Source of the DNA: a virus
Strand: one strand, 5' to 3'
DNA: 35,533 bases
Virus record (IMG/VR): IMGVR_UViG_3300038701_001970
Location: 1-35,533 of that record
Both the position numbers and the translations under genes were made by a program. The notes beneath the pieces were generated by a model. It was not told where the DNA came from. It searched no databases and saw only the letters and a program-made list of their open reading frames with translations. Each line of letters starts with the position of its first letter. Position 1 is the first letter of the stretch. Positions 1-24,962 of this stretch are shown piece by piece.

Positions 1-474
1 AGTGATGCTCACTTCGATCCGCACATGTCGCTCAAGCATTGCATAAATGCCACAACACTGGAGCATGATGTTGTCTTGATCGACACACCCACCAACCTTG
101 GCATTCACGTACTCAATGCGTTGGCGGCATCAACCGATGTACTCTTGCCGGTGGAGACATCCGTGCTCTCACTGTCGAATCTGGAGCGCACAAAGACCTA
201 TGTGGGCAAAATCCAAGAGCGGGTCAACCCTGCGCTCAACATCCTGGGCATCATCCCCACACGCGTCGACACACAGACCGTACTCGATCAGGATGTGATT
301 GATGAACTACACAATGAACCCTTTGAGGTGTTTGAACCCGTACCCAAGAGTGTGCGCGTCAAGGAAGCGCCAGATTACAACCAGAGCATCATTGCATACG
401 AACCCACAAACAAAGCAAGCAAGGCATACATGAGCATCGCACGTCGACTGTTGGAGGTCATTCATGGCAAGTAG
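1..474 (+). CDS. parA: ParA partition ATPase, C-terminal part (5' end outside window)
   Basis: The reading frame is open from base 1, so the N-terminus with the Walker A motif lies before the window. The visible part carries a ParA/Soj-type Walker B region (VVLIDTPTNLG), then an alternating helix/strand pattern ending LNILGIIPTRVD and a C-terminal helix rich in basic residues. ParA ATPases move ParB-bound plasmid or prophage DNA apart over the nucleoid. The next gene is ParB-like and overlaps this one by 11 nt, as in a parAB operon. Partition genes beside a replication cassette suggest low-copy plasmid-type maintenance. The family call is firm; whether it segregates the phage genome or only autoregulates is inference. 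Confidence 0.85.
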   Translation, partial: SDAHFDPHMSLKHCINATTLEHDVVLIDTPTNLGIHVLNALAASTDVLLPVETSVLSLSNLERTKTYVGKIQERVNPALNILGIIPTRVDTQTVLDQDVIDELHNEPFEVFEPVPKSVRVKEAPDYNQSIIAYEPTNKASKAYMSIARRLLEVIHGK

Positions 475-1540
475 GAAGGGACTCAACAAAACCAAGCGCG
501 CCGTGGACGACATGATCAATAAAACAAGATTGGTCGACCTGGACACCATCACCCTGCACCCCGAGCTTCAAATTCGCGTGGAAATCGACCAATCGACCGT
601 CGGTGAGTACAAGGAATTGATGCACAAGGAACCCGGTCAGTTCGTCGTCAACGAGAACAAGCGCAATGAACAATGGCCACCGCTTGAGCTTTATGTGGAG
701 GGCAAGACGCTTTGGCTTGTCGATGGGTGGCACCGATACCTTGCAGCTCAAAAAAAGGGCTACAAAGACTTCCAGGCCAACATCATCTCGGGCACGTTCG
801 AGGACGCGAAGCTCGCAGCGCTCTACGCCAACAGCACAAACGGACTTCGACGTAACAACGAAGATAAACGCAACGCCGTCAAGATCGCGCTCCAAATTCC
901 TGAACTTGCCAAGTTGACCGATCGTGCGCTCGCGCGAAAGCTGGGCATCAGCGGTCCGTTCGTTGGCAAGATTCGCAAGCAATTGGAGTTGGCCGGTAAG
1001 CTCGATGAAAACATCGAACGCGTTGGTCTGGATGGGCGTGTCTACAACACCAAGAACATTGGCGCAAAACCCAAAAAGCCGACCAAGAAAGACTTCCACA
1101 TCCGCAAGCCCAAGGACATTCCTACGACCATTGATGGCAACGAATCTATCCCTGATGTCTTTGGGTACAACCCAGTACCGTCGATCGAACCGGAAGACCT
1201 GGGCGATTTTACGACACGCCACAAGGTCATGTTCTTCGCCGCCAGGAGTCACAATCAGTGGAATGAGTTGTTTGACCAGATCAACCACACCACAGTCTAC
1301 ATCACACCCAAACCACGCCACTACACCATCAATGACGTGTTCACAGGCATGAATCATTCACGCGCTGGTGTCATTCTGTGTCGCGGCTTCGTGGGCATCA
1401 ATGACCAAAACGCTCACGACCCGGAGGTTTGGATATGGGGCGGCGAAGGCATCGAAGATGTTGACATGAAACTACCCGATCGAATTGACACGATCGACGA
1501 CCTATCCGAACACCTGAAATCTCGACTGGAGCATCAATGA
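464..1540 (+). CDS. parB: ParB-like partition protein (centromere-binding candidate)
   Basis: 358 aa. Residues about 22-135 form a ParB/Srx-type N-terminal domain with DGWHRYLAA (about 87-95) in the place of the ParB box, followed by GLRRNNEDKR (about 127-136), typical of phage and plasmid ParB-like proteins. A helix-turn-helix follows at about 151-175 (RALARKLGISGPFVGKIRKQ). The C-terminal 150 residues are lineage-specific and may carry dimerisation. The start codon overlaps the parA end by 11 nt, so the two are translationally coupled. No parS tract of the chromosomal type is seen near it. Candidate sites are the 13-bp inverted repeats at 1849 and 2265 and the dispersed palindromes at 5766, 10163, 11827, 17675 and 20900. 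It could instead be a ParB-family transcription regulator. Confidence 0.8.
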   Translation: MASRKGLNKTKRAVDDMINKTRLVDLDTITLHPELQIRVEIDQSTVGEYKELMHKEPGQFVVNENKRNEQWPPLELYVEGKTLWLVDGWHRYLAAQKKGYKDFQANIISGTFEDAKLAALYANSTNGLRRNNEDKRNAVKIALQIPELAKLTDRALARKLGISGPFVGKIRKQLELAGKLDENIERVGLDGRVYNTKNIGAKPKKPTKKDFHIRKPKDIPTTIDGNESIPDVFGYNPVPSIEPEDLGDFTTRHKVMFFAARSHNQWNELFDQINHTTVYITPKPRHYTINDVFTGMNHSRAGVILCRGFVGINDQNAHDPEVWIWGGEGIEDVDMKLPDRIDTIDDLSEHLKSRLEHQ

Positions 1541-8449: not shown

Positions 8450-8863
8450 ATGAGTGATGCTCTGTTTGTGTGGGTGTTGCGTCGGAGTAGTCGTGATCCT
8501 CAATTGGCGCAAGATGGTTATGTGCATGGAATCTATGCCACGAAAGAAGCGGCGCACCATGCAATGATTTTGATGGGCTATCACGACTTTTGGTCGGTTG
8601 ACACGCACTGTGACGATGACATGTGGACGACAAGCGCGCGTCGTCATGGTGAGAAGTGCTGGTTTTGTGCCACACGAACTGAGGTGATCAACGCGGTGCC
8701 AGTTGAGGTTGAAGTCGGGATGCACGTTCAGGGTCGTCGAGGTGGTTTTGTGGAGGTTGTTCTTGAGGTGACATGCGATCATGTGATCGTGCAGCCCGTC
8801 GGCACAACTCGGCGCATTGCAATGCGCCGATGGGATTTTTGGGAAATACACAAACAGGTATAA
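8450..8863 (+). CDS. Hypothetical protein
   Basis: 137 aa. ATG preceded by GCAGGAG at good spacing. Tryptophan- and histidine-rich N-terminal half (FVWVLRRSSRDP; HDFWSVDTHCDD), one WFC motif, and a C-terminal beta-rich part (EVEVGMHVQGRRGGFVEV) like a small SH3 or KOW-type barrel. The last codons contain a 20-bp perfect palindrome. Its TAA stop overlaps the first ATG of the next gene. Not recognised. Confidence 0.65.
   Translation: MSDALFVWVLRRSSRDPQLAQDGYVHGIYATKEAAHHAMILMGYHDFWSVDTHCDDDMWTTSARRHGEKCWFCATRTEVINAVPVEVEVGMHVQGRRGGFVEVVLEVTCDHVIVQPVGTTRRIAMRRWDFWEIHKQV
8810..8840 (+). terminator. Perfect 20-bp palindrome followed by T-run
   Basis: CGGCGCATTG directly followed by CAATGCGCCG (8810-8829) is perfectly self-complementary and as RNA gives an 8-bp stem with a TGCA loop. 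TTTTT follows at 8836-8840, six bases later. It is inside the end of the 8450 gene, just ahead of the RNA ligase gene. It may be a weak intrinsic terminator (the offset T-run argues against a strong one), a structure hiding the ligase start, or an operator. Confidence 0.4.
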
Positions 8864-8865
8864 TG

Positions 8866-10197
8866 ATGAATGAATTGAATGCAATCCCCATTACGCATAT
8901 GCGTGTGGATGAACTGGTGTCGATGTTTCAAGAGAATGAACAAGAGGTGCTAAGGCTCATCGACGAAGACCCCTTGTTGCGCAAGCGAGAGCACCCTGAC
9001 GGGCTTGTAATCGCAAACGCGAGCAAGGGCTTGTTTGAACCCACCATGGAGCACCAGGTCTTCGCCAAGGGCATTGTGTACACACGCAACCCATATCGGT
9101 TGGTGGCCATGCCCCTGATGAAGATGCACAATTATGATATGAACGCTGCGTTGATGCAGACCATCAGCGAGGTGCGATCGAATGAGTTGGATGTGCATGT
9201 AGAGTTCAACCACAAGGAGGATGGTACCTTTGTGCAGGTGTTCGAGCACAACGGCAAGGTGTACTTTGCGACGCGCTCGGTCATTGAAGGGTGTGAGGTT
9301 GCCAATGGTGCGCATTGTCGCAATTTTGACTACATCGGCACAGCACGACGAATCCTTGAAGAGCAGTGGTCATTTGCGTTGGGGCTTGTGTGTGAAGAGC
9401 CGGTGTCGTTGTTCTTTGAACTGATTCATCCTGAGTGTCGTGTGATCAGCGATTATGAGGACATGGAAACGATGGTGCTCATAGGTGGTTTCGACAAGGC
9501 ACATGCCGGGTATCGCTACTTCAGTAATGCGGATCTGATGTATTTCGAGATGGATGGCGCGAATATCCCAAGTCACTTCGCGAACAATGATCCATCGAAA
9601 ATGGAATCGGTGCTTTTTGCGACACTGAGCCAGCTCAATGATATGCCAGCGTTGCCCGAAGGCTTGGTGGTCTCCCTGGTTCAAAACCAACAACTGGTGC
9701 TCTGTCGCTTCAAGGTCAAGACTTCAGCGTATATTGATGCACACAGATTGAAATATGCCCATTCGTACAAAAGCGTGGTCAAGATGCTCTGGAACCATGA
9801 AGAGTTGCGTGCGTGGGATGTGTTCTTGAGGCATTTGAAGGGTCGTGGACACGTTGACGAAGAAATACAGGCAGTCTATCGCAAGCACTTTGATACATTC
9901 AGTTCATGGATGACGGGGTTGCGACAGTCCTTGCAAGATTGTCGGCTTGAGGTCGATGCGATCCAACGTCGATACGTCAAGGACGGAAGTCATTCGTGGA
10001 ATAGAAACAATGAGATTCGCAAGATCATTGGCAAGGACTACAAAAACCACCCGTGTCAGGGGTTGATGTTCAAAGTGGTCTCCGACAGGGCTAACGTTGT
10101 CGCCGCCGCGAAGCATGATCCACCATACAAGGGCTTTGCCAATGATTTAAGAACAGGTGTTTTGACTGCAACTGTTTGCAGTCAGGATCAGGTTTGA
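8866..10197 (+). CDS. RNA ligase, T4 Rnl1-like (ATP-dependent, tRNA-repair type)
   Basis: 443 aa from ATG 8866 (ATG 8863 also possible). Covalent nucleotidyltransferase motifs are in order: upstream FAKGIVYTRNP (66-76) and PLMKMHNY (83-90) matching the RG...KFFN region of Rnl1; motif I K117-E-D-G; motif III SLFFELIHPE (181-190); motif IV P264-EGLVV; motif V RFKVKTSAYIDAHR (281-294). Such enzymes join 5'-phosphate and 3'-OH RNA ends through a lysyl-AMP intermediate. T4 Rnl1 reseals tRNA cut by host anticodon nucleases. About 150 extra C-terminal residues replace the Rnl1 tRNA-specificity domain, unrecognised here. Three tRNA-like elements elsewhere in the window give a possible substrate. The last codons run through palindrome copy 2. 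Confidence 0.75.
   Translation: MNELNAIPITHMRVDELVSMFQENEQEVLRLIDEDPLLRKREHPDGLVIANASKGLFEPTMEHQVFAKGIVYTRNPYRLVAMPLMKMHNYDMNAALMQTISEVRSNELDVHVEFNHKEDGTFVQVFEHNGKVYFATRSVIEGCEVANGAHCRNFDYIGTARRILEEQWSFALGLVCEEPVSLFFELIHPECRVISDYEDMETMVLIGGFDKAHAGYRYFSNADLMYFEMDGANIPSHFANNDPSKMESVLFATLSQLNDMPALPEGLVVSLVQNQQLVLCRFKVKTSAYIDAHRLKYAHSYKSVVKMLWNHEELRAWDVFLRHLKGRGHVDEEIQAVYRKHFDTFSSWMTGLRQSLQDCRLEVDAIQRRYVKDGSHSWNRNNEIRKIIGKDYKNHPCQGLMFKVVSDRANVVAAAKHDPPYKGFANDLRTGVLTATVCSQDQV
10163..10184. promoter_or_regulatory. Dispersed palindrome copy 2 (operator overlapping -35)
   Basis: TGACTGCAA (10163-10171), centre CTGT, TTGCAGTCA (10176-10184). One base shorter in the middle than the other copies. It lies at the 3' end of the RNA ligase gene, and its right arm supplies the -35 of the promoter before the HU-like gene. 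A bound protein would block that promoter. Confidence 0.75.
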
Positions 10198-11824: not shown

Positions 11825-11826
11825 TT

Positions 11827-11849
11827 TGACTGCGAATGGTTTGCAGTCA
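11827..11849. promoter_or_regulatory. Dispersed palindrome copy 3
   Basis: TGACTGCGAA (11827-11836), centre TGG, TTTGCAGTCA (11840-11849), with one mismatch between arms. It starts two bases after tRNA-like element 1 and ends 15 bp before the SspB-like start codon, partly adjoining its ribosome-binding site (AAGG, 11853-11856). No good -10 lies at promoter distance, so here it would act on translation, on readthrough, or as a non-promoter binding site. Confidence 0.75.
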
Positions 11850-11864
11850 CCAAAGGTAGGCAAG

Positions 11865-12275
11865 ATGAGTGATGACGACAACCTGATTCGAGTGGATTTC
11901 AGTGGTAAGTTTGACCGTCCGAAGGGTTCATTTTTTGATGATTTGAAACTCAAGCAGGTTGTGAGTGAGGATGTGGATGCAATGCGTTTGCAGTTCTTCG
12001 AGCGAGCGATTGAGCTTGGTAAAACCCGAGTGGTTCTTATCCCCCATATGAAGGGGGTCGATGTGCCAGAGCAATTTACCTCACACCATACACTTGCGTT
12101 GGATTTCTCACATATGTTTGGTTGTGATGTGTTCGAGTTTGACGAACAAGGCATTCGCGCGACTTTGAGCTTTGGCGGCGTAGATTATCTGTGCGTTGTG
12201 CCATGGTCGTCTGTCTTTGCGATCCAGCCTTGTGGCGAGCCATCGCAGGTGTTTGTGTCAGTGGGGATGTTTTGA
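11865..12275 (+). CDS. SspB-like ClpXP adaptor
   Basis: 136 aa from ATG 11865, with AAAGGTAGG just upstream. Residues about 55-125 fit the SspB substrate-binding fold: VVLIPHMKGVDVPEQF, LALDFSHMFG, then IRATLSFGGVDYLCVVPWSS and VFAIQPCGE. The FGG...VPW...AI series is the hallmark. SspB tethers ssrA-tagged or other substrates to the ClpX unfoldase. Bacterial SspB ends in a short ClpX-binding tail after a disordered linker. Here the protein ends soon after the fold (SQVFVSVGMF), so a ClpX tail is not obvious and it might act as a decoy. Phage homologues are uncommon in my experience. Confidence 0.6.
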   Translation: MSDDDNLIRVDFSGKFDRPKGSFFDDLKLKQVVSEDVDAMRLQFFERAIELGKTRVVLIPHMKGVDVPEQFTSHHTLALDFSHMFGCDVFEFDEQGIRATLSFGGVDYLCVVPWSSVFAIQPCGEPSQVFVSVGMF

Positions 12276-22212: not shown

Positions 22213-22218
22213 GTGCGA

Positions 22219-22319
22219 TGGTTGCACTGATGCAACCACTGTAAAAGGGTAGAGGGTGTTGGGTTCCTTCACGTTGGTTTTGTCCTCCTGCTTGTTGTGG
22301 ATTCATGCCCAACACTCTC
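22219..22319 (+). ncRNA. Two hairpins in the leader of tRNA-like element 3
   Basis: TGGTTGCA/TGCAACCA (22219-22226 / 22231-22238) form a perfect 8-bp stem with loop CTGA. GAGGGTGTTGGG near 22252-22263 then pairs with CCCAACACTCTC (22308-22319) over 12 bp with one G-T, enclosing 44 nt. The long stem ends five bases before the tRNA-like element. No T-run follows either hairpin. The whole of 22213-22414 carries no supported gene. Confidence 0.5.
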
Positions 22320-22324
22320 GCAAT

Positions 22325-22397
22325 GAAGCTATAGTTTAAGCGGCAGAACGCTCAGACAACAATCTGGGTGGTCTCGGTTCGAGTCCGGGTGGTTTCA
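22325..22397 (+). tRNA. tRNA cloverleaf with aberrant anticodon loop (isotype undetermined)
   Basis: Exactly 73 nt to the discriminator A. Acceptor GAAGCTA / TGGTTTC pairs at all seven positions (two G-T). T8 and A9 are present. D-arm GTTT / GAAC has an 8-nt loop AAGCGGCA holding A14, G18-G19 and A21. T-arm is CTCGG-TTCGAGT-CCGGG. The anticodon arm is odd: CTCAG (22351-22355) pairs with CTGGG (22364-22368) leaving an 8-nt loop ACAACAAT, or a 6-bp stem with a 6-nt loop. Neither has U33. Standard numbering would place AAC at 34-36 but without a proper stem. No CCA is encoded. The cloverleaf is convincing; decoding function is doubtful. Confidence 0.6.
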
Positions 22398-22414: not shown

Positions 22415-22975
22415 ATGTCCATCAAAACCGTTCAATACACTACAAGGCACGATGTGCCGCTTGATGAGTTGATGCCGCACCCTCAAAACGCCAACGAAGG
22501 CGATGTGGGCGCAGTCATCACAAGCATCCAAGAAAATGGCTGGTATGGCCATATTGGTGTCGATGTCAACACGGGTTGGATCGTGTGGGGTCACACACGT
22601 CGCAAGGCGCTGATGGCCATGGGCGAGAAGACTTGCCCGGAAGTTCGTTTTTACGAAGAGTTGTCCAGTGTGGTTGCGTTGAGAATGTTGACCGTCGACA
22701 ACCGAAGTTGTCGACTTGGCATGGACAACAGCGCCCGTCAGTTGGAAAACCTCAAAATCCTTGAGTCCGACAACGCGTTGCTCGGTTCTGGCTTTGATGA
22801 GGATGACATGGATCGTCTTGCTGCATTGCTTGCCGGTGATGACGACGTTGATGATCCTGGCGATGGCGATCCGCGTGAGAGTTTTCGCATTGTGATTCAC
22901 TGTGATTGTGAAGATGAGCAGTCACACATCAGCATGCAACTTGCAAGTATGGGTGTTGAGCACGAGATTAAATAA
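22415..22975 (+). CDS. ParB/Srx-fold protein beside the terminase genes
   Basis: 186 aa. The N-terminal domain has the pattern VPLDELMPHPQNANEGDV, IVWGHTRRKALMAMGEKTCP (a GH-x-R-x-x-A box) and VALRMLTVDNRSCRLG, as in the ParB-like nuclease domains that phages often encode next to the small terminase, sometimes fused to a methyltransferase. Here the second domain is short and acidic (LAALLAGDDDVDDPGDGDP). It is not the partition ParB of this element, which is at 464. Likely roles are DNA nicking, or binding near the packaging site. ATG 22415 lacks a clear ribosome-binding site; its leader is the tRNA-like element. Confidence 0.75.
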   Translation: MSIKTVQYTTRHDVPLDELMPHPQNANEGDVGAVITSIQENGWYGHIGVDVNTGWIVWGHTRRKALMAMGEKTCPEVRFYEELSSVVALRMLTVDNRSCRLGMDNSARQLENLKILESDNALLGSGFDEDDMDRLAALLAGDDDVDDPGDGDPRESFRIVIHCDCEDEQSHISMQLASMGVEHEIK

Positions 22976-23529
22976 TGTCCGAAAAGTTGTGGCACAAAAC
23001 CACTGATGAAAAATCAGTGCAATATCTGTGGTTTACTCGCTTTCGAGACATGCCATTACCCCGGACAATCAAGAAGTTCCACAAGGCGGTCAAGAAAGAA
23101 TTTAGCGATGCCGAAACTGTGCCGTCGTTGTCAACGTTCAAGCGCTGGAGTGCGGAGTTTGATTGGCAAGATCGCGTGGACGCTTGGGATGAAGATGGTC
23201 TCGCCCGTGCGACTGAAGCGCAGGAGAAACATCGGCTGGAGATGATCGAAAAGTCGGTTCTTGCCCAGACGCGTCGCATCAACTCACTGCGTGCACAGCG
23301 CGCCTTGTTGACGAAGAAGCAAGAAACCTTTCAGAAGAAATATGAAAACGGCATGCCCGTTGGGGTGGACTCGCTGCACAAACTGACCAAGTCGATCGTC
23401 GCGGTCAACGCCGCGCTCAAGGCGGAGTGGGATCGTTATCATCTGGATGGACAGGATGACGATGAGCAAGCCACCCATGGGGGCGTCACCGTCCTTGTCA
23501 TGCCGGACAATGGTCGAGTCAACAAATAG
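22975..23529 (+). CDS. terS: Terminase small subunit
   Basis: 184 aa, ATG overlapping the previous TAA (TAATG). The helix-turn-helix region holds PSLSTFKRWSAEFDWQDRVD (about 50-69), the typical small-terminase motif of P-x-x-x-T-x-x-x-W-S followed by W-x-x-R. A long helical oligomerisation part follows (LEMIEKSVLAQTRRINSLRA). It recognises the packaging site and feeds DNA to the large subunit. Position directly before the large terminase supports the call. Confidence 0.8.
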   Translation: MSEKLWHKTTDEKSVQYLWFTRFRDMPLPRTIKKFHKAVKKEFSDAETVPSLSTFKRWSAEFDWQDRVDAWDEDGLARATEAQEKHRLEMIEKSVLAQTRRINSLRAQRALLTKKQETFQKKYENGMPVGVDSLHKLTKSIVAVNAALKAEWDRYHLDGQDDDEQATHGGVTVLVMPDNGRVNK

Positions 23530-24962
23530 CACCACAACGCATCATAGAGCCGCAAGAGGGGCCACAAACCAAGGCGCTCGCGTGCAGCGCAAACATTTTG
23601 ATTTATGGTGGCGCGGCAGGTGGCGGCAAGAGCTGGTATCTTCGATATGAAGCCCTTCGTGGCATTCACCACAAGGAACACAACGCTATCATCTTTCGTC
23701 GCAAACGCGTCGATGTGGTAGGCAGTGGCGGCGCGGGTTCGATGTGGGGCGAGGCCAGTTCGCTCTATCGGTCCTTGGGCGCAAAGAGCAATGACACCAA
23801 GTTGACATGTCGATTCCCCTCCGGGGCGACGATACAGTTTAGTCATTTGCAGCATGAAAAAGACTGCGAGAATCACCAGGGCCAGGAGTACACCTATGTC
23901 GGCTTCGATGAGGGCACGCACTTTACCGAGTATCAGTTCTGGTCACTTTATGGCCGACTGAGGACCACATCAAACGACATCAAGCCGTACATTCGGCTAT
24001 CCTGCAACCCTGACCCTGACTCGTTCGTGTGTGATTTGGTGTTGCCGTGGTTGGACGAGCATGGCGATCCAATCCCCGAACTCGATGGCGAGGTCAAATA
24101 CATCTTTCGCGACAACGGCGAAACGATTTGGGTTGATGATGAAGGTCAACCGCTGACGGCGGATAGTCGTGATGCGTTTGGAAAACCGCCAATCAGCATC
24201 GCGTTCATCGCAGCGCGCCTTGAAGACAACAAGTACATTGATGATGACTACGAACAAAAGCTCAATGCGCTGACAAAGGTCGAGCGCGCCCGAAAGAAAG
24301 ATGGCAACTGGTTTACCAGGGAGCGTGATGGTCTCTTCAAAGAGCACCAAATCACAGCGATGGTCCCTTCTGCGTTGCCGAGCAACGTGCGTTGGGTGCG
24401 ATATTGGGATCTTGCACACACTGACCCAAGCTCATCCAATCCAAACCCGGACGCCACAGCGGGTGCATTGATTGGTCTTTGGCGCGATGAGGCAGGCAAG
24501 CATCATGTTTGCATTGCAGATATGGCGCGGCGTCAAGTCGCTGGCAGTAAAAAAGAAAAATGGATCAAGTCGATCGCAGTGCGTGATGATGCGTGGCTCA
24601 AGTCCAGTCGCTTCAAAGGCACAAGGTGCCAGATCGTAGTCGAGCAAGAGCCAGCATCAGGCAAGGAATTGATCGCCATCTACCAGACCGGATTTCTGTC
24701 CGGTCATTTGGTTGAAGGTGACTTGCCTCGTGGTGACAAGGAGGCGCGCGCTCGACTGTGGTTGCCACATGCTCAGACTGGATATGTGCATTTGCTCACA
24801 GATGAACACGGGCACATTCCACCATGGCATCGCGAGTTCATCGGAGAGCTTGAGAGTTTCCCGAACAAGAAAAAGGATCAGGTTGATGCCGTGTCCGGTG
24901 GTTTTGCCTACCTGACCAAAGCCAAGCCGAAATTCAATCCAAAGGTGTTGGGAACGTTTTGA
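23526..24962 (+). CDS. terL: Terminase large subunit (ATPase/nuclease), probable ATA start
   Basis: 478 aa if started at ATA 23526. Walker A GGAAGGGKS (28-36), Walker B YVGFDEGTHF, coupling motif LSCNPDP; the nuclease half has RYWDLAHTDP with its catalytic Asp, VVEQEPASGKELIAIY and KKDQVDAVSGGFAYL. The conserved stretch before Walker A (IIEPQEGPQTKALACSANIL) is in frame, but no ATG, GTG or TTG precedes it after the upstream stop at 23463. ATA 23526 overlaps the terS stop as ATAG, copying the ATGA overlaps of this genome. TTG 23598 would delete most of the region before Walker A. A frameshift or a sequence error are alternatives. Confidence 0.9.
   Translation: MAPQRIIEPQEGPQTKALACSANILIYGGAAGGGKSWYLRYEALRGIHHKEHNAIIFRRKRVDVVGSGGAGSMWGEASSLYRSLGAKSNDTKLTCRFPSGATIQFSHLQHEKDCENHQGQEYTYVGFDEGTHFTEYQFWSLYGRLRTTSNDIKPYIRLSCNPDPDSFVCDLVLPWLDEHGDPIPELDGEVKYIFRDNGETIWVDDEGQPLTADSRDAFGKPPISIAFIAARLEDNKYIDDDYEQKLNALTKVERARKKDGNWFTRERDGLFKEHQITAMVPSALPSNVRWVRYWDLAHTDPSSSNPNPDATAGALIGLWRDEAGKHHVCIADMARRQVAGSKKEKWIKSIAVRDDAWLKSSRFKGTRCQIVVEQEPASGKELIAIYQTGFLSGHLVEGDLPRGDKEARARLWLPHAQTGYVHLLTDEHGHIPPWHREFIGELESFPNKKKDQVDAVSGGFAYLTKAKPKFNPKVLGTF

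What the first reader, a model, noticed from the sequence alone, without database searches (positions are those of the whole stretch)
22325..22397. 73-nt cloverleaf with enlarged, U33-less anticodon loop
Seen: complete acceptor, D and T arms with canonical invariant bases, but CTCAG/CTGGG closes an 8-nt loop ACAACAAT (or 6 bp with a 6-nt loop). Known: almost all elongator tRNAs have a 7-nt loop with U33, and 8-nt loops can promote +1 frameshifting. The reverse complement of the arm would carry a GTT in a loop with U33, so a small inversion is one possible origin. Inference: either non-decoding by design, for instance resistant to anticodon nucleases, or degenerating.
Basis: partly seen in the sequence, partly recalled or inferred. 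Interest (0 to 1): 0.6.

Follow-up and report, generated by a model that had tools for sequence, protein, structure and literature searches.

The report
Phage tRNA without a usable anticodon
A phage DNA fragment carries a well-formed transfer-RNA gene whose anticodon loop has the wrong size and lacks the base needed to read codons, so it probably does something other than translation or is a relic; similar odd tRNA-like genes turn up in several unrelated phages, and in one Streptomyces phage group the shape is clearly conserved.

Summary
Confirmed: 22325-22397 (+) is a genuine tRNA-derived element (Rfam tRNA 39.1 bits, gathering 29; the only tRNA in the 35.5-kb viral record). All 22 helix pairs and the elbow bases are intact. 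Its anticodon arm has no canonical 7-nt loop: it is 6 bp + CAACAA (ARAGORN, RNAfold) or 5 bp + ACAACAAT, without U33 in either reading. It sits 17 nt before a ParB-like gene that opens the terminase/portal/capsid run, just after an unusually strong 13-bp leader hairpin. No homologue was found in viral, phage or bacterial collections, so conservation of this copy cannot be tested. Aberrant anticodon arms recur in phages: 17 of 772 distinct ARAGORN tRNAs in the fetched loci have 6- or 8-nt loops; 24 of 65 tRNA-like hits with this D-arm type are non-canonical. In Beephvirinae, one with the same 19-nt D-arm belongs to a structure-conserved, covarying tRNA-like domain capped by 4-5-nt loops, with no anticodon. 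Best reading: a non-decoding tRNA-shaped RNA, possibly an RNA-processing signal; a degenerating tRNA is the close rival. Inversion origin and leader/anticodon pairing were tested and not supported. New variant of a known kind (pseudo-tRNA); moderate interest.

The parts
22325..22397 (+). tRNA-like gene, 73 nt, no encoded CCA; acceptor GAAGCTA/TGGTTTC, D-arm GTTT-AAGCGGCA-GAAC, T-arm CTCGG-TTCGAGT-CCGGG, discriminator A
22351..22368 (+). aberrant anticodon arm CTCAGACAACAATCTGGG: 6 bp + CAACAA, or 5 bp + ACAACAAT; no U33
22252..22319 (+). 13-bp leader hairpin (GAGGGTGTTGGG.../...CCCAACACTCTC) ending 5 nt before the tRNA-like element
22218..22239 (+). second short hairpin (ATGGTTGCA-CTGA-TGCAACCAC) in the same intergenic leader
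22415..22975 (+). ParB-like protein gene starting 17 nt after the element
22975..23529 (+). terminase small subunit gene (phrog_6299)
23598..24962 (+). terminase large subunit gene (phrog_979)
8773..10197 (+). RNA ligase-like gene (phrog_562) with KEDG, EGLVV and FKVKT motifs; contextual only

Best explanation
A tRNA-derived, non-decoding RNA. Shown: the tRNA body (acceptor, D and T arms, elbow) is complete, the anticodon arm cannot present a triplet in a U33 loop, and the element lies in the leader of the packaging gene run behind a strong hairpin. Inferred: it is kept for its tRNA shape rather than its anticodon. The most economical use is as a cleavage signal for RNase P and a 3' tRNA-processing nuclease (these enzymes recognise the acceptor/T-arm half), cutting the polycistronic transcript between the upstream genes and the ParB-terminase-capsid genes, while the 13-bp hairpin protects the new 3' end of the upstream RNA.
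For: Intact body with abnormal loop. Position in the intergenic leader, 17 nt before the ParB start, all neighbouring genes on the same strand. Leader structure z=-3.26, 0/200 shuffles; hairpin helix of 11 Watson-Crick pairs, reached by only 4 of 292 canonical phage tRNAs. Precedent that phages can maintain tRNA shapes without an anticodon: Streptomyces phage Manuel (L246/L264) shares the exact 19-nt D-arm, and in ten Beephvirinae phages the domain pairs at 60/60 acceptor, 40/40 D, 47/47 anticodon-position and 49/50 T cells with many Watson-Crick alternatives, capped by GNNNA or GGGA loops. Other unrelated phages have U33-less or anticodon-less versions, some just before terminase genes (L237; Salinibacter phage B2_17).
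Against: No relative of this copy was found, so selection on it is unproven. Leader hairpins are not significantly commoner before aberrant tRNA-likes (5/16) than before canonical phage tRNAs (47/292) at >=7 Watson-Crick pairs. Proximity to terminase is not general among the aberrant elements. No transcription or cleavage data; no CCA is encoded. The Beephvirinae pair counts use a structure-guided hand parse, and one of the ten sequences (FlowerPower) did not match the typed parse exactly.
Confidence: 0.38

Rival explanations
1. A degenerating phage tRNA: a formerly decoding tRNA that lost its anticodon loop and is drifting, with no present function.
For: 39.1 bits, weaker than most other phage tRNAs scored with the same model (best hits 55-72 bits, 62.3); five G.U pairs; no relatives; no close match to any single isotype.
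Against: All 22 pairs and the elbow are intact while the 8-nt loop carries at least two abnormal features (size, U33 loss); uniform decay would be expected to hit the other arms too (inference). No bacterial genome in the collection has the 21-nt D-arm string that could mark a recent host donor.
Confidence: 0.33
2. An anti-defence RNA: a decoy or sponge for an anticodon nuclease or other tRNA-targeting host defence, or an uncleavable tRNA mimic.
For: The phage encodes an RNA ligase-like protein, consistent with exposure to RNA-cleaving defences. Phage tRNAs are proposed to evade tRNA-cleaving defences by anticodon-loop mutations (PMC10264068).
Against: The published cases keep decoding loops; this loop resembles no nuclease target known to me, and no defence partner was identified. 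The ligase gene is over 12 kb away.
Confidence: 0.12
3. A decoding tRNA with an unusual loop (for example a +1 or expanded-codon reader).
For: An 8-nt loop register exists; CAA is among the triplets and TTG is the commonest Leu codon in the genes counted.
Against: No U33; both tools that pick a register prefer 6 bp/6 nt; a class I body for Leu; A34 needed for the other triplets.
Confidence: 0.06
4. A base-calling or assembly error turned a normal loop into this one.
For: A single extra U after C32 would make the loop CUAACAA; the record is an IMG/VR viral record classed as linear that starts inside parA, so it is a fragment.
Against: Removing any single base from the 8-nt loop never gives a 7-nt loop with U33; with the extra U there would still be two bases between the D and anticodon stems and an anticodon (AAC) that is rare in bacteria (general knowledge).
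Confidence: 0.07

Closest known systems
Pseudo-tRNA tRNA-Other of Bacillus cereus (PMC3399842)
   Same: tRNA-shaped, proposed to act outside translation, part of a larger transcript
   Different: Chromosomal, has a Trp anticodon; the window element has no usable anticodon and is in a phage
Phage tRNAs with anticodon-loop mutations against tRNA-cleaving defences (PMC10264068)
   Same: Phage-encoded, altered anticodon loop, possible link to RNA-damage defence
   Different: Those are decoding tRNAs with point changes; here loop size and U33 are lost
Beephvirinae tRNA-like domain (Manuel 'tRNA-OTHER', MG518519)
   Same: Same 19-nt D-arm, intergenic, hairpin directly upstream, short non-decoding arm
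   Different: G-A/G-C acceptor end, GNNNA or GGGA cap, lies between WhiB-family (or hypothetical) and Cas4-exonuclease genes, part of a conserved ~300-nt region; no evidence of common descent with the window element
MALAT1-type tRNA-like (mascRNA)
   Same: tRNA-like without a decoding arm; known (from general knowledge) to act as an RNase P cleavage signal
   Different: Eukaryotic; the window element matches the Rfam tRNA model, not mascRNA
tRNA-dependent lysogeny tRNAs (PMC10865867)
   Same: Single tRNA in a phage genome
   Different: Those are functional tRNAs paired with a tyrosine integrase; no integrase was recognised here

Membership tests
tRNA (Rfam RF00005) | match to the covariance model above the gathering score | tested here: met
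   39.1 vs 29 bits
Functional elongator tRNA | 7-nt anticodon loop with U33 | tested here: not met
   6- or 8-nt loop, no U33 in either register
Functional elongator tRNA | aminoacylation and ribosome use | not testable with these tools
   needs tRNA sequencing or charging assay
Beephvirinae-type tRNA-like domain | anticodon-position stem capped by GNNNA or GGGA | tested here: not met
   window loop is CAACAA
Beephvirinae-type tRNA-like domain | GA...GC acceptor end and conserved ~300-nt context | tested here: not met
   window acceptor is GAAGCTA/TGGTTTC with different flanks
Pseudo-tRNA (non-decoding tRNA-like gene) | tRNA fold that is not used for decoding | tested here: inconclusive
   anatomy argues against decoding; use not tested
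tRNA-dependent lysogeny tRNA | functional tRNA plus tyrosine integrase with attP | tested here: not met
   no integrase among the proteins profiled and no decoding loop; the record is a fragment

The most novel reading that the evidence does not exclude
Phages carry a broad, largely mis-annotated class of anticodon-less tRNA-like RNAs, kept for their tRNA shape and used as processing or regulatory elements in polycistronic transcripts; the window element is one independent case at the start of the packaging genes.
Probability: 0.25. Interest if true: 0.75.

Novelty: new variant of a known kind. Interest (0 to 1): 0.47.

Why it matters
Why phages carry tRNA genes is a long-standing question, mostly answered in terms of codon supply or defence against tRNA cleavage. 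A tRNA-shaped phage RNA that cannot read codons cannot be explained by codon supply, and it makes a third use (RNA processing or regulation) directly testable, most easily in the conserved Streptomyces-phage version. It also warns that automatic calls such as tRNA-Pro(agg) in phage genomes can be wrong.

Tried and rejected
Leader/anticodon pairing: the leader carries TTGTTGT, complementary to ACAACAA, but 9.6% of leader shuffles and 2.1% of genome windows do too; rejected. Inversion origin: the inverted arm still has an 8-nt loop; rejected. Shared 18-mer in L002: no tRNA at that place, taken as a chance match. Terminase adjacency as a general rule: seen in the window, L237, Salinibacter B2_17 and Lactobacillus phage ATCC 8014-B2 (canonical tRNA-Gly), not in L246, L239, L212 or others. 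Terminase and ParB relatives mostly lack a tRNA. Leader hairpin as a mark of aberrant tRNAs: not significant. Isotype origin: no clear nearest isotype. Host donor or sister copies in bacterial genomes: none. ARAGORN tRNA-Gly calls in L071 and L118 were not confirmed by Rfam in those records.

Full report
Observation. The window is an entire IMG/VR viral record of 35,533 bases. The 73-nt element at 22325-22397 is the only tRNA found in it by ARAGORN, by Rfam at gathering score and by a single-family search. It scores 39.1 bits against a gathering score of 29. Reading the sequence: acceptor GAAGCTA/TGGTTTC (7 pairs), D-arm GTTT-AAGCGGCA-GAAC (4 pairs), T-arm CTCGG-TTCGAGT-CCGGG (5 pairs), U8, A14, G18G19, A21 and the T-loop bases present, discriminator A, no encoded CCA. 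The anticodon arm is CTCAGACAACAATCTGGG. ARAGORN and RNAfold pair six bases and leave CAACAA; the five-pair reading leaves ACAACAAT. Neither has U33. The distance between D- and T-stems is 23 nt, the commonest value for canonical phage tRNAs, so overall length is normal and only the register and the loop are not.

Is it chance or an artefact? A structural scan for acceptor, D and T arms found 425 hits in 2.0 Mb of fetched phage DNA and none in shuffled sequence, so the fold is not chance. A sequencing error cannot be excluded, but removing any single base from the 8-nt loop gives no 7-nt loop with U33. The record is a fragment: its first reading frame matches only the last third of a ParA profile, so further tRNA genes could lie outside it.

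Surroundings. All neighbouring genes assigned run on the + strand. A ParB-like gene starts 17 nt downstream, followed by terminase small and large subunits, portal, protease and major capsid. Upstream are two uncharacterised genes and a 112-nt intergenic leader. The leader folds better than 200 of 200 shuffles; its main feature is a 13-bp hairpin ending 5 nt before the tRNA-like element. Other genes: ParA/ParB, DnaC- and DnaB-like proteins, thymidylate synthase, a RusA-like resolvase, dCTP deaminase, a Band-7 protein and an RNA ligase-like protein with KEDG, EGLVV and FKVKT motifs. No integrase was recognised.

Search for relatives. The tRNA string, its D-arm and its anticodon arm have no homologue in viral contigs or bacterial genomes and only weak partial matches in phage records. 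Terminase relatives are at most 39% identical and ParB relatives of useful length at most 43%. Those relatives mostly lack tRNAs. Conservation of this copy therefore cannot be tested.

How unusual is it? Among 772 distinct ARAGORN tRNAs in the fetched loci (a sample biased towards one D-arm), 17 have 6- or 8-nt loops, the window included. Among 98 distinct sequences matching the D-arm TAGTTTAANYGGYAGAAC, 65 have matching acceptor and T arms, and 24 of these are non-canonical in the anticodon region. They range from no arm at all (L201) through 4-, 5- and 6-nt loops (L246, L174, L164, L176, L217, L237) and an 8-nt loop (L257) to large insertions (L186, L202, L250, L207, L211). At least one of the 24 (L148) looks like a tRNA with a long variable arm that the test miscounts, so 24 is an upper figure.

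A conserved parallel. L246 is Streptomyces phage Manuel; it shares the exact 19-nt D-arm TAGTTTAAGCGGCAGAACG with the window. BLAST and annotated regions show that Beephvirinae phages of three genera carry a tRNA-like element upstream of the Cas4-exonuclease gene (downstream of a WhiB-family or hypothetical gene), annotated as tRNA-OTHER, tRNA-Pro(agg), tRNA-Leu(gag), pseudo-tRNA or not at all. In a structure-guided parse of ten of them, 60/60 acceptor, 40/40 D, 47/47 anticodon-position and 49/50 T cells are standard pairs, with up to four Watson-Crick types per pair, and every cap is GNNNA or GGGA. One sequence (FlowerPower) did not match the typed parse exactly. Rfam sees four of eight tested as tRNA above gathering score and the rest not. 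This shows that a phage lineage can keep a tRNA shape without an anticodon. It does not show descent from a common element with the window: the cap, the acceptor end and the context differ.

Mechanism. Since the loop cannot decode but the acceptor/T-arm half is intact, I favour a shape-dependent use; RNase P and 3' tRNA-processing nucleases need that half and not the anticodon (general knowledge). Location between two gene blocks and the leader hairpin fit a processing signal, but the hairpin test across phages was not significant (5/16 aberrant against 47/292 canonical), and proximity to terminase genes is not general. Degeneration is almost as likely. Anti-defence use is possible, given the ligase gene and the published proposal for phage tRNAs, but nothing ties it to this loop.

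The description was accurate. The inversion idea is not supported, because inverting the arm leaves an 8-nt loop. The leader TTGTTGT complementary to the loop looked interesting but occurs in 9.6% of shuffles.

Novelty. Non-decoding tRNA-like genes are known (B. cereus tRNA-Other), and phage tRNAs with mutated loops are known. My limited paper searches found no description of phage tRNA-likes with missing or capped anticodon arms; that is weak evidence of absence. I file the window element as a new variant of a known kind.

Noticed in passing
L264-L275 (Streptomyces phages Manuel, RosePharie, JPandJE, Percastrophe, Stella, JXY1, Kumquat, WRightOn, FlowerPower, Dennebes, Treat, Abafar): A ~300-nt intergenic region upstream of the Cas4-exonuclease gene is conserved: hairpin, covarying anticodon-less tRNA-like domain, and conserved downstream blocks (GATTAC, CGTGACTG, GGGT..GA.GCCC). 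Annotations as tRNA-Pro or tRNA-Leu look wrong.
   Followed up: partly
L186:3875, L202 (- strand, 9413), L250:5054, and L207 (- strand, 3233): tRNA-like genes whose anticodon arm is replaced by a conserved insertion around ATCCTG(T/C)AAAGG, seen in several phage contigs.
   Followed up: no
L216 (- strand, 230 and 371), L203/L204: tRNAs with long insertions (up to about 50 nt beyond normal) next to the anticodon arm; the two in L216 resemble each other.
   Followed up: no
L201:6043: tRNA-like with acceptor, D and T arms but no anticodon arm (9 nt instead), with a hairpin abutting its 5' end.
   Followed up: partly
L006:6108-6180 (Salinibacter phage B2_17): Annotated tRNA-Gly just upstream of the terminase genes has a 6-bp arm with a GTCCA cap (or G33 in a 7-nt loop) and is called by neither ARAGORN nor Rfam.
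   Followed up: partly
L005:1149-1213, minus strand (Arthrobacter phage Ranunculus): tRNA-like element before gene 1 on the opposite strand; best Rfam match is mascRNA-menRNA below its gathering score (30.2 vs 42.5 bits).
   Followed up: no
window 25-1540: ParA (truncated by the contig start) and ParB genes with no recognised integrase; the phage may be a plasmid-like prophage.
   Followed up: no
window 11826-12275: Weak SspB-like match (E 8.4e-5, below Pfam cut-off).
   Followed up: no
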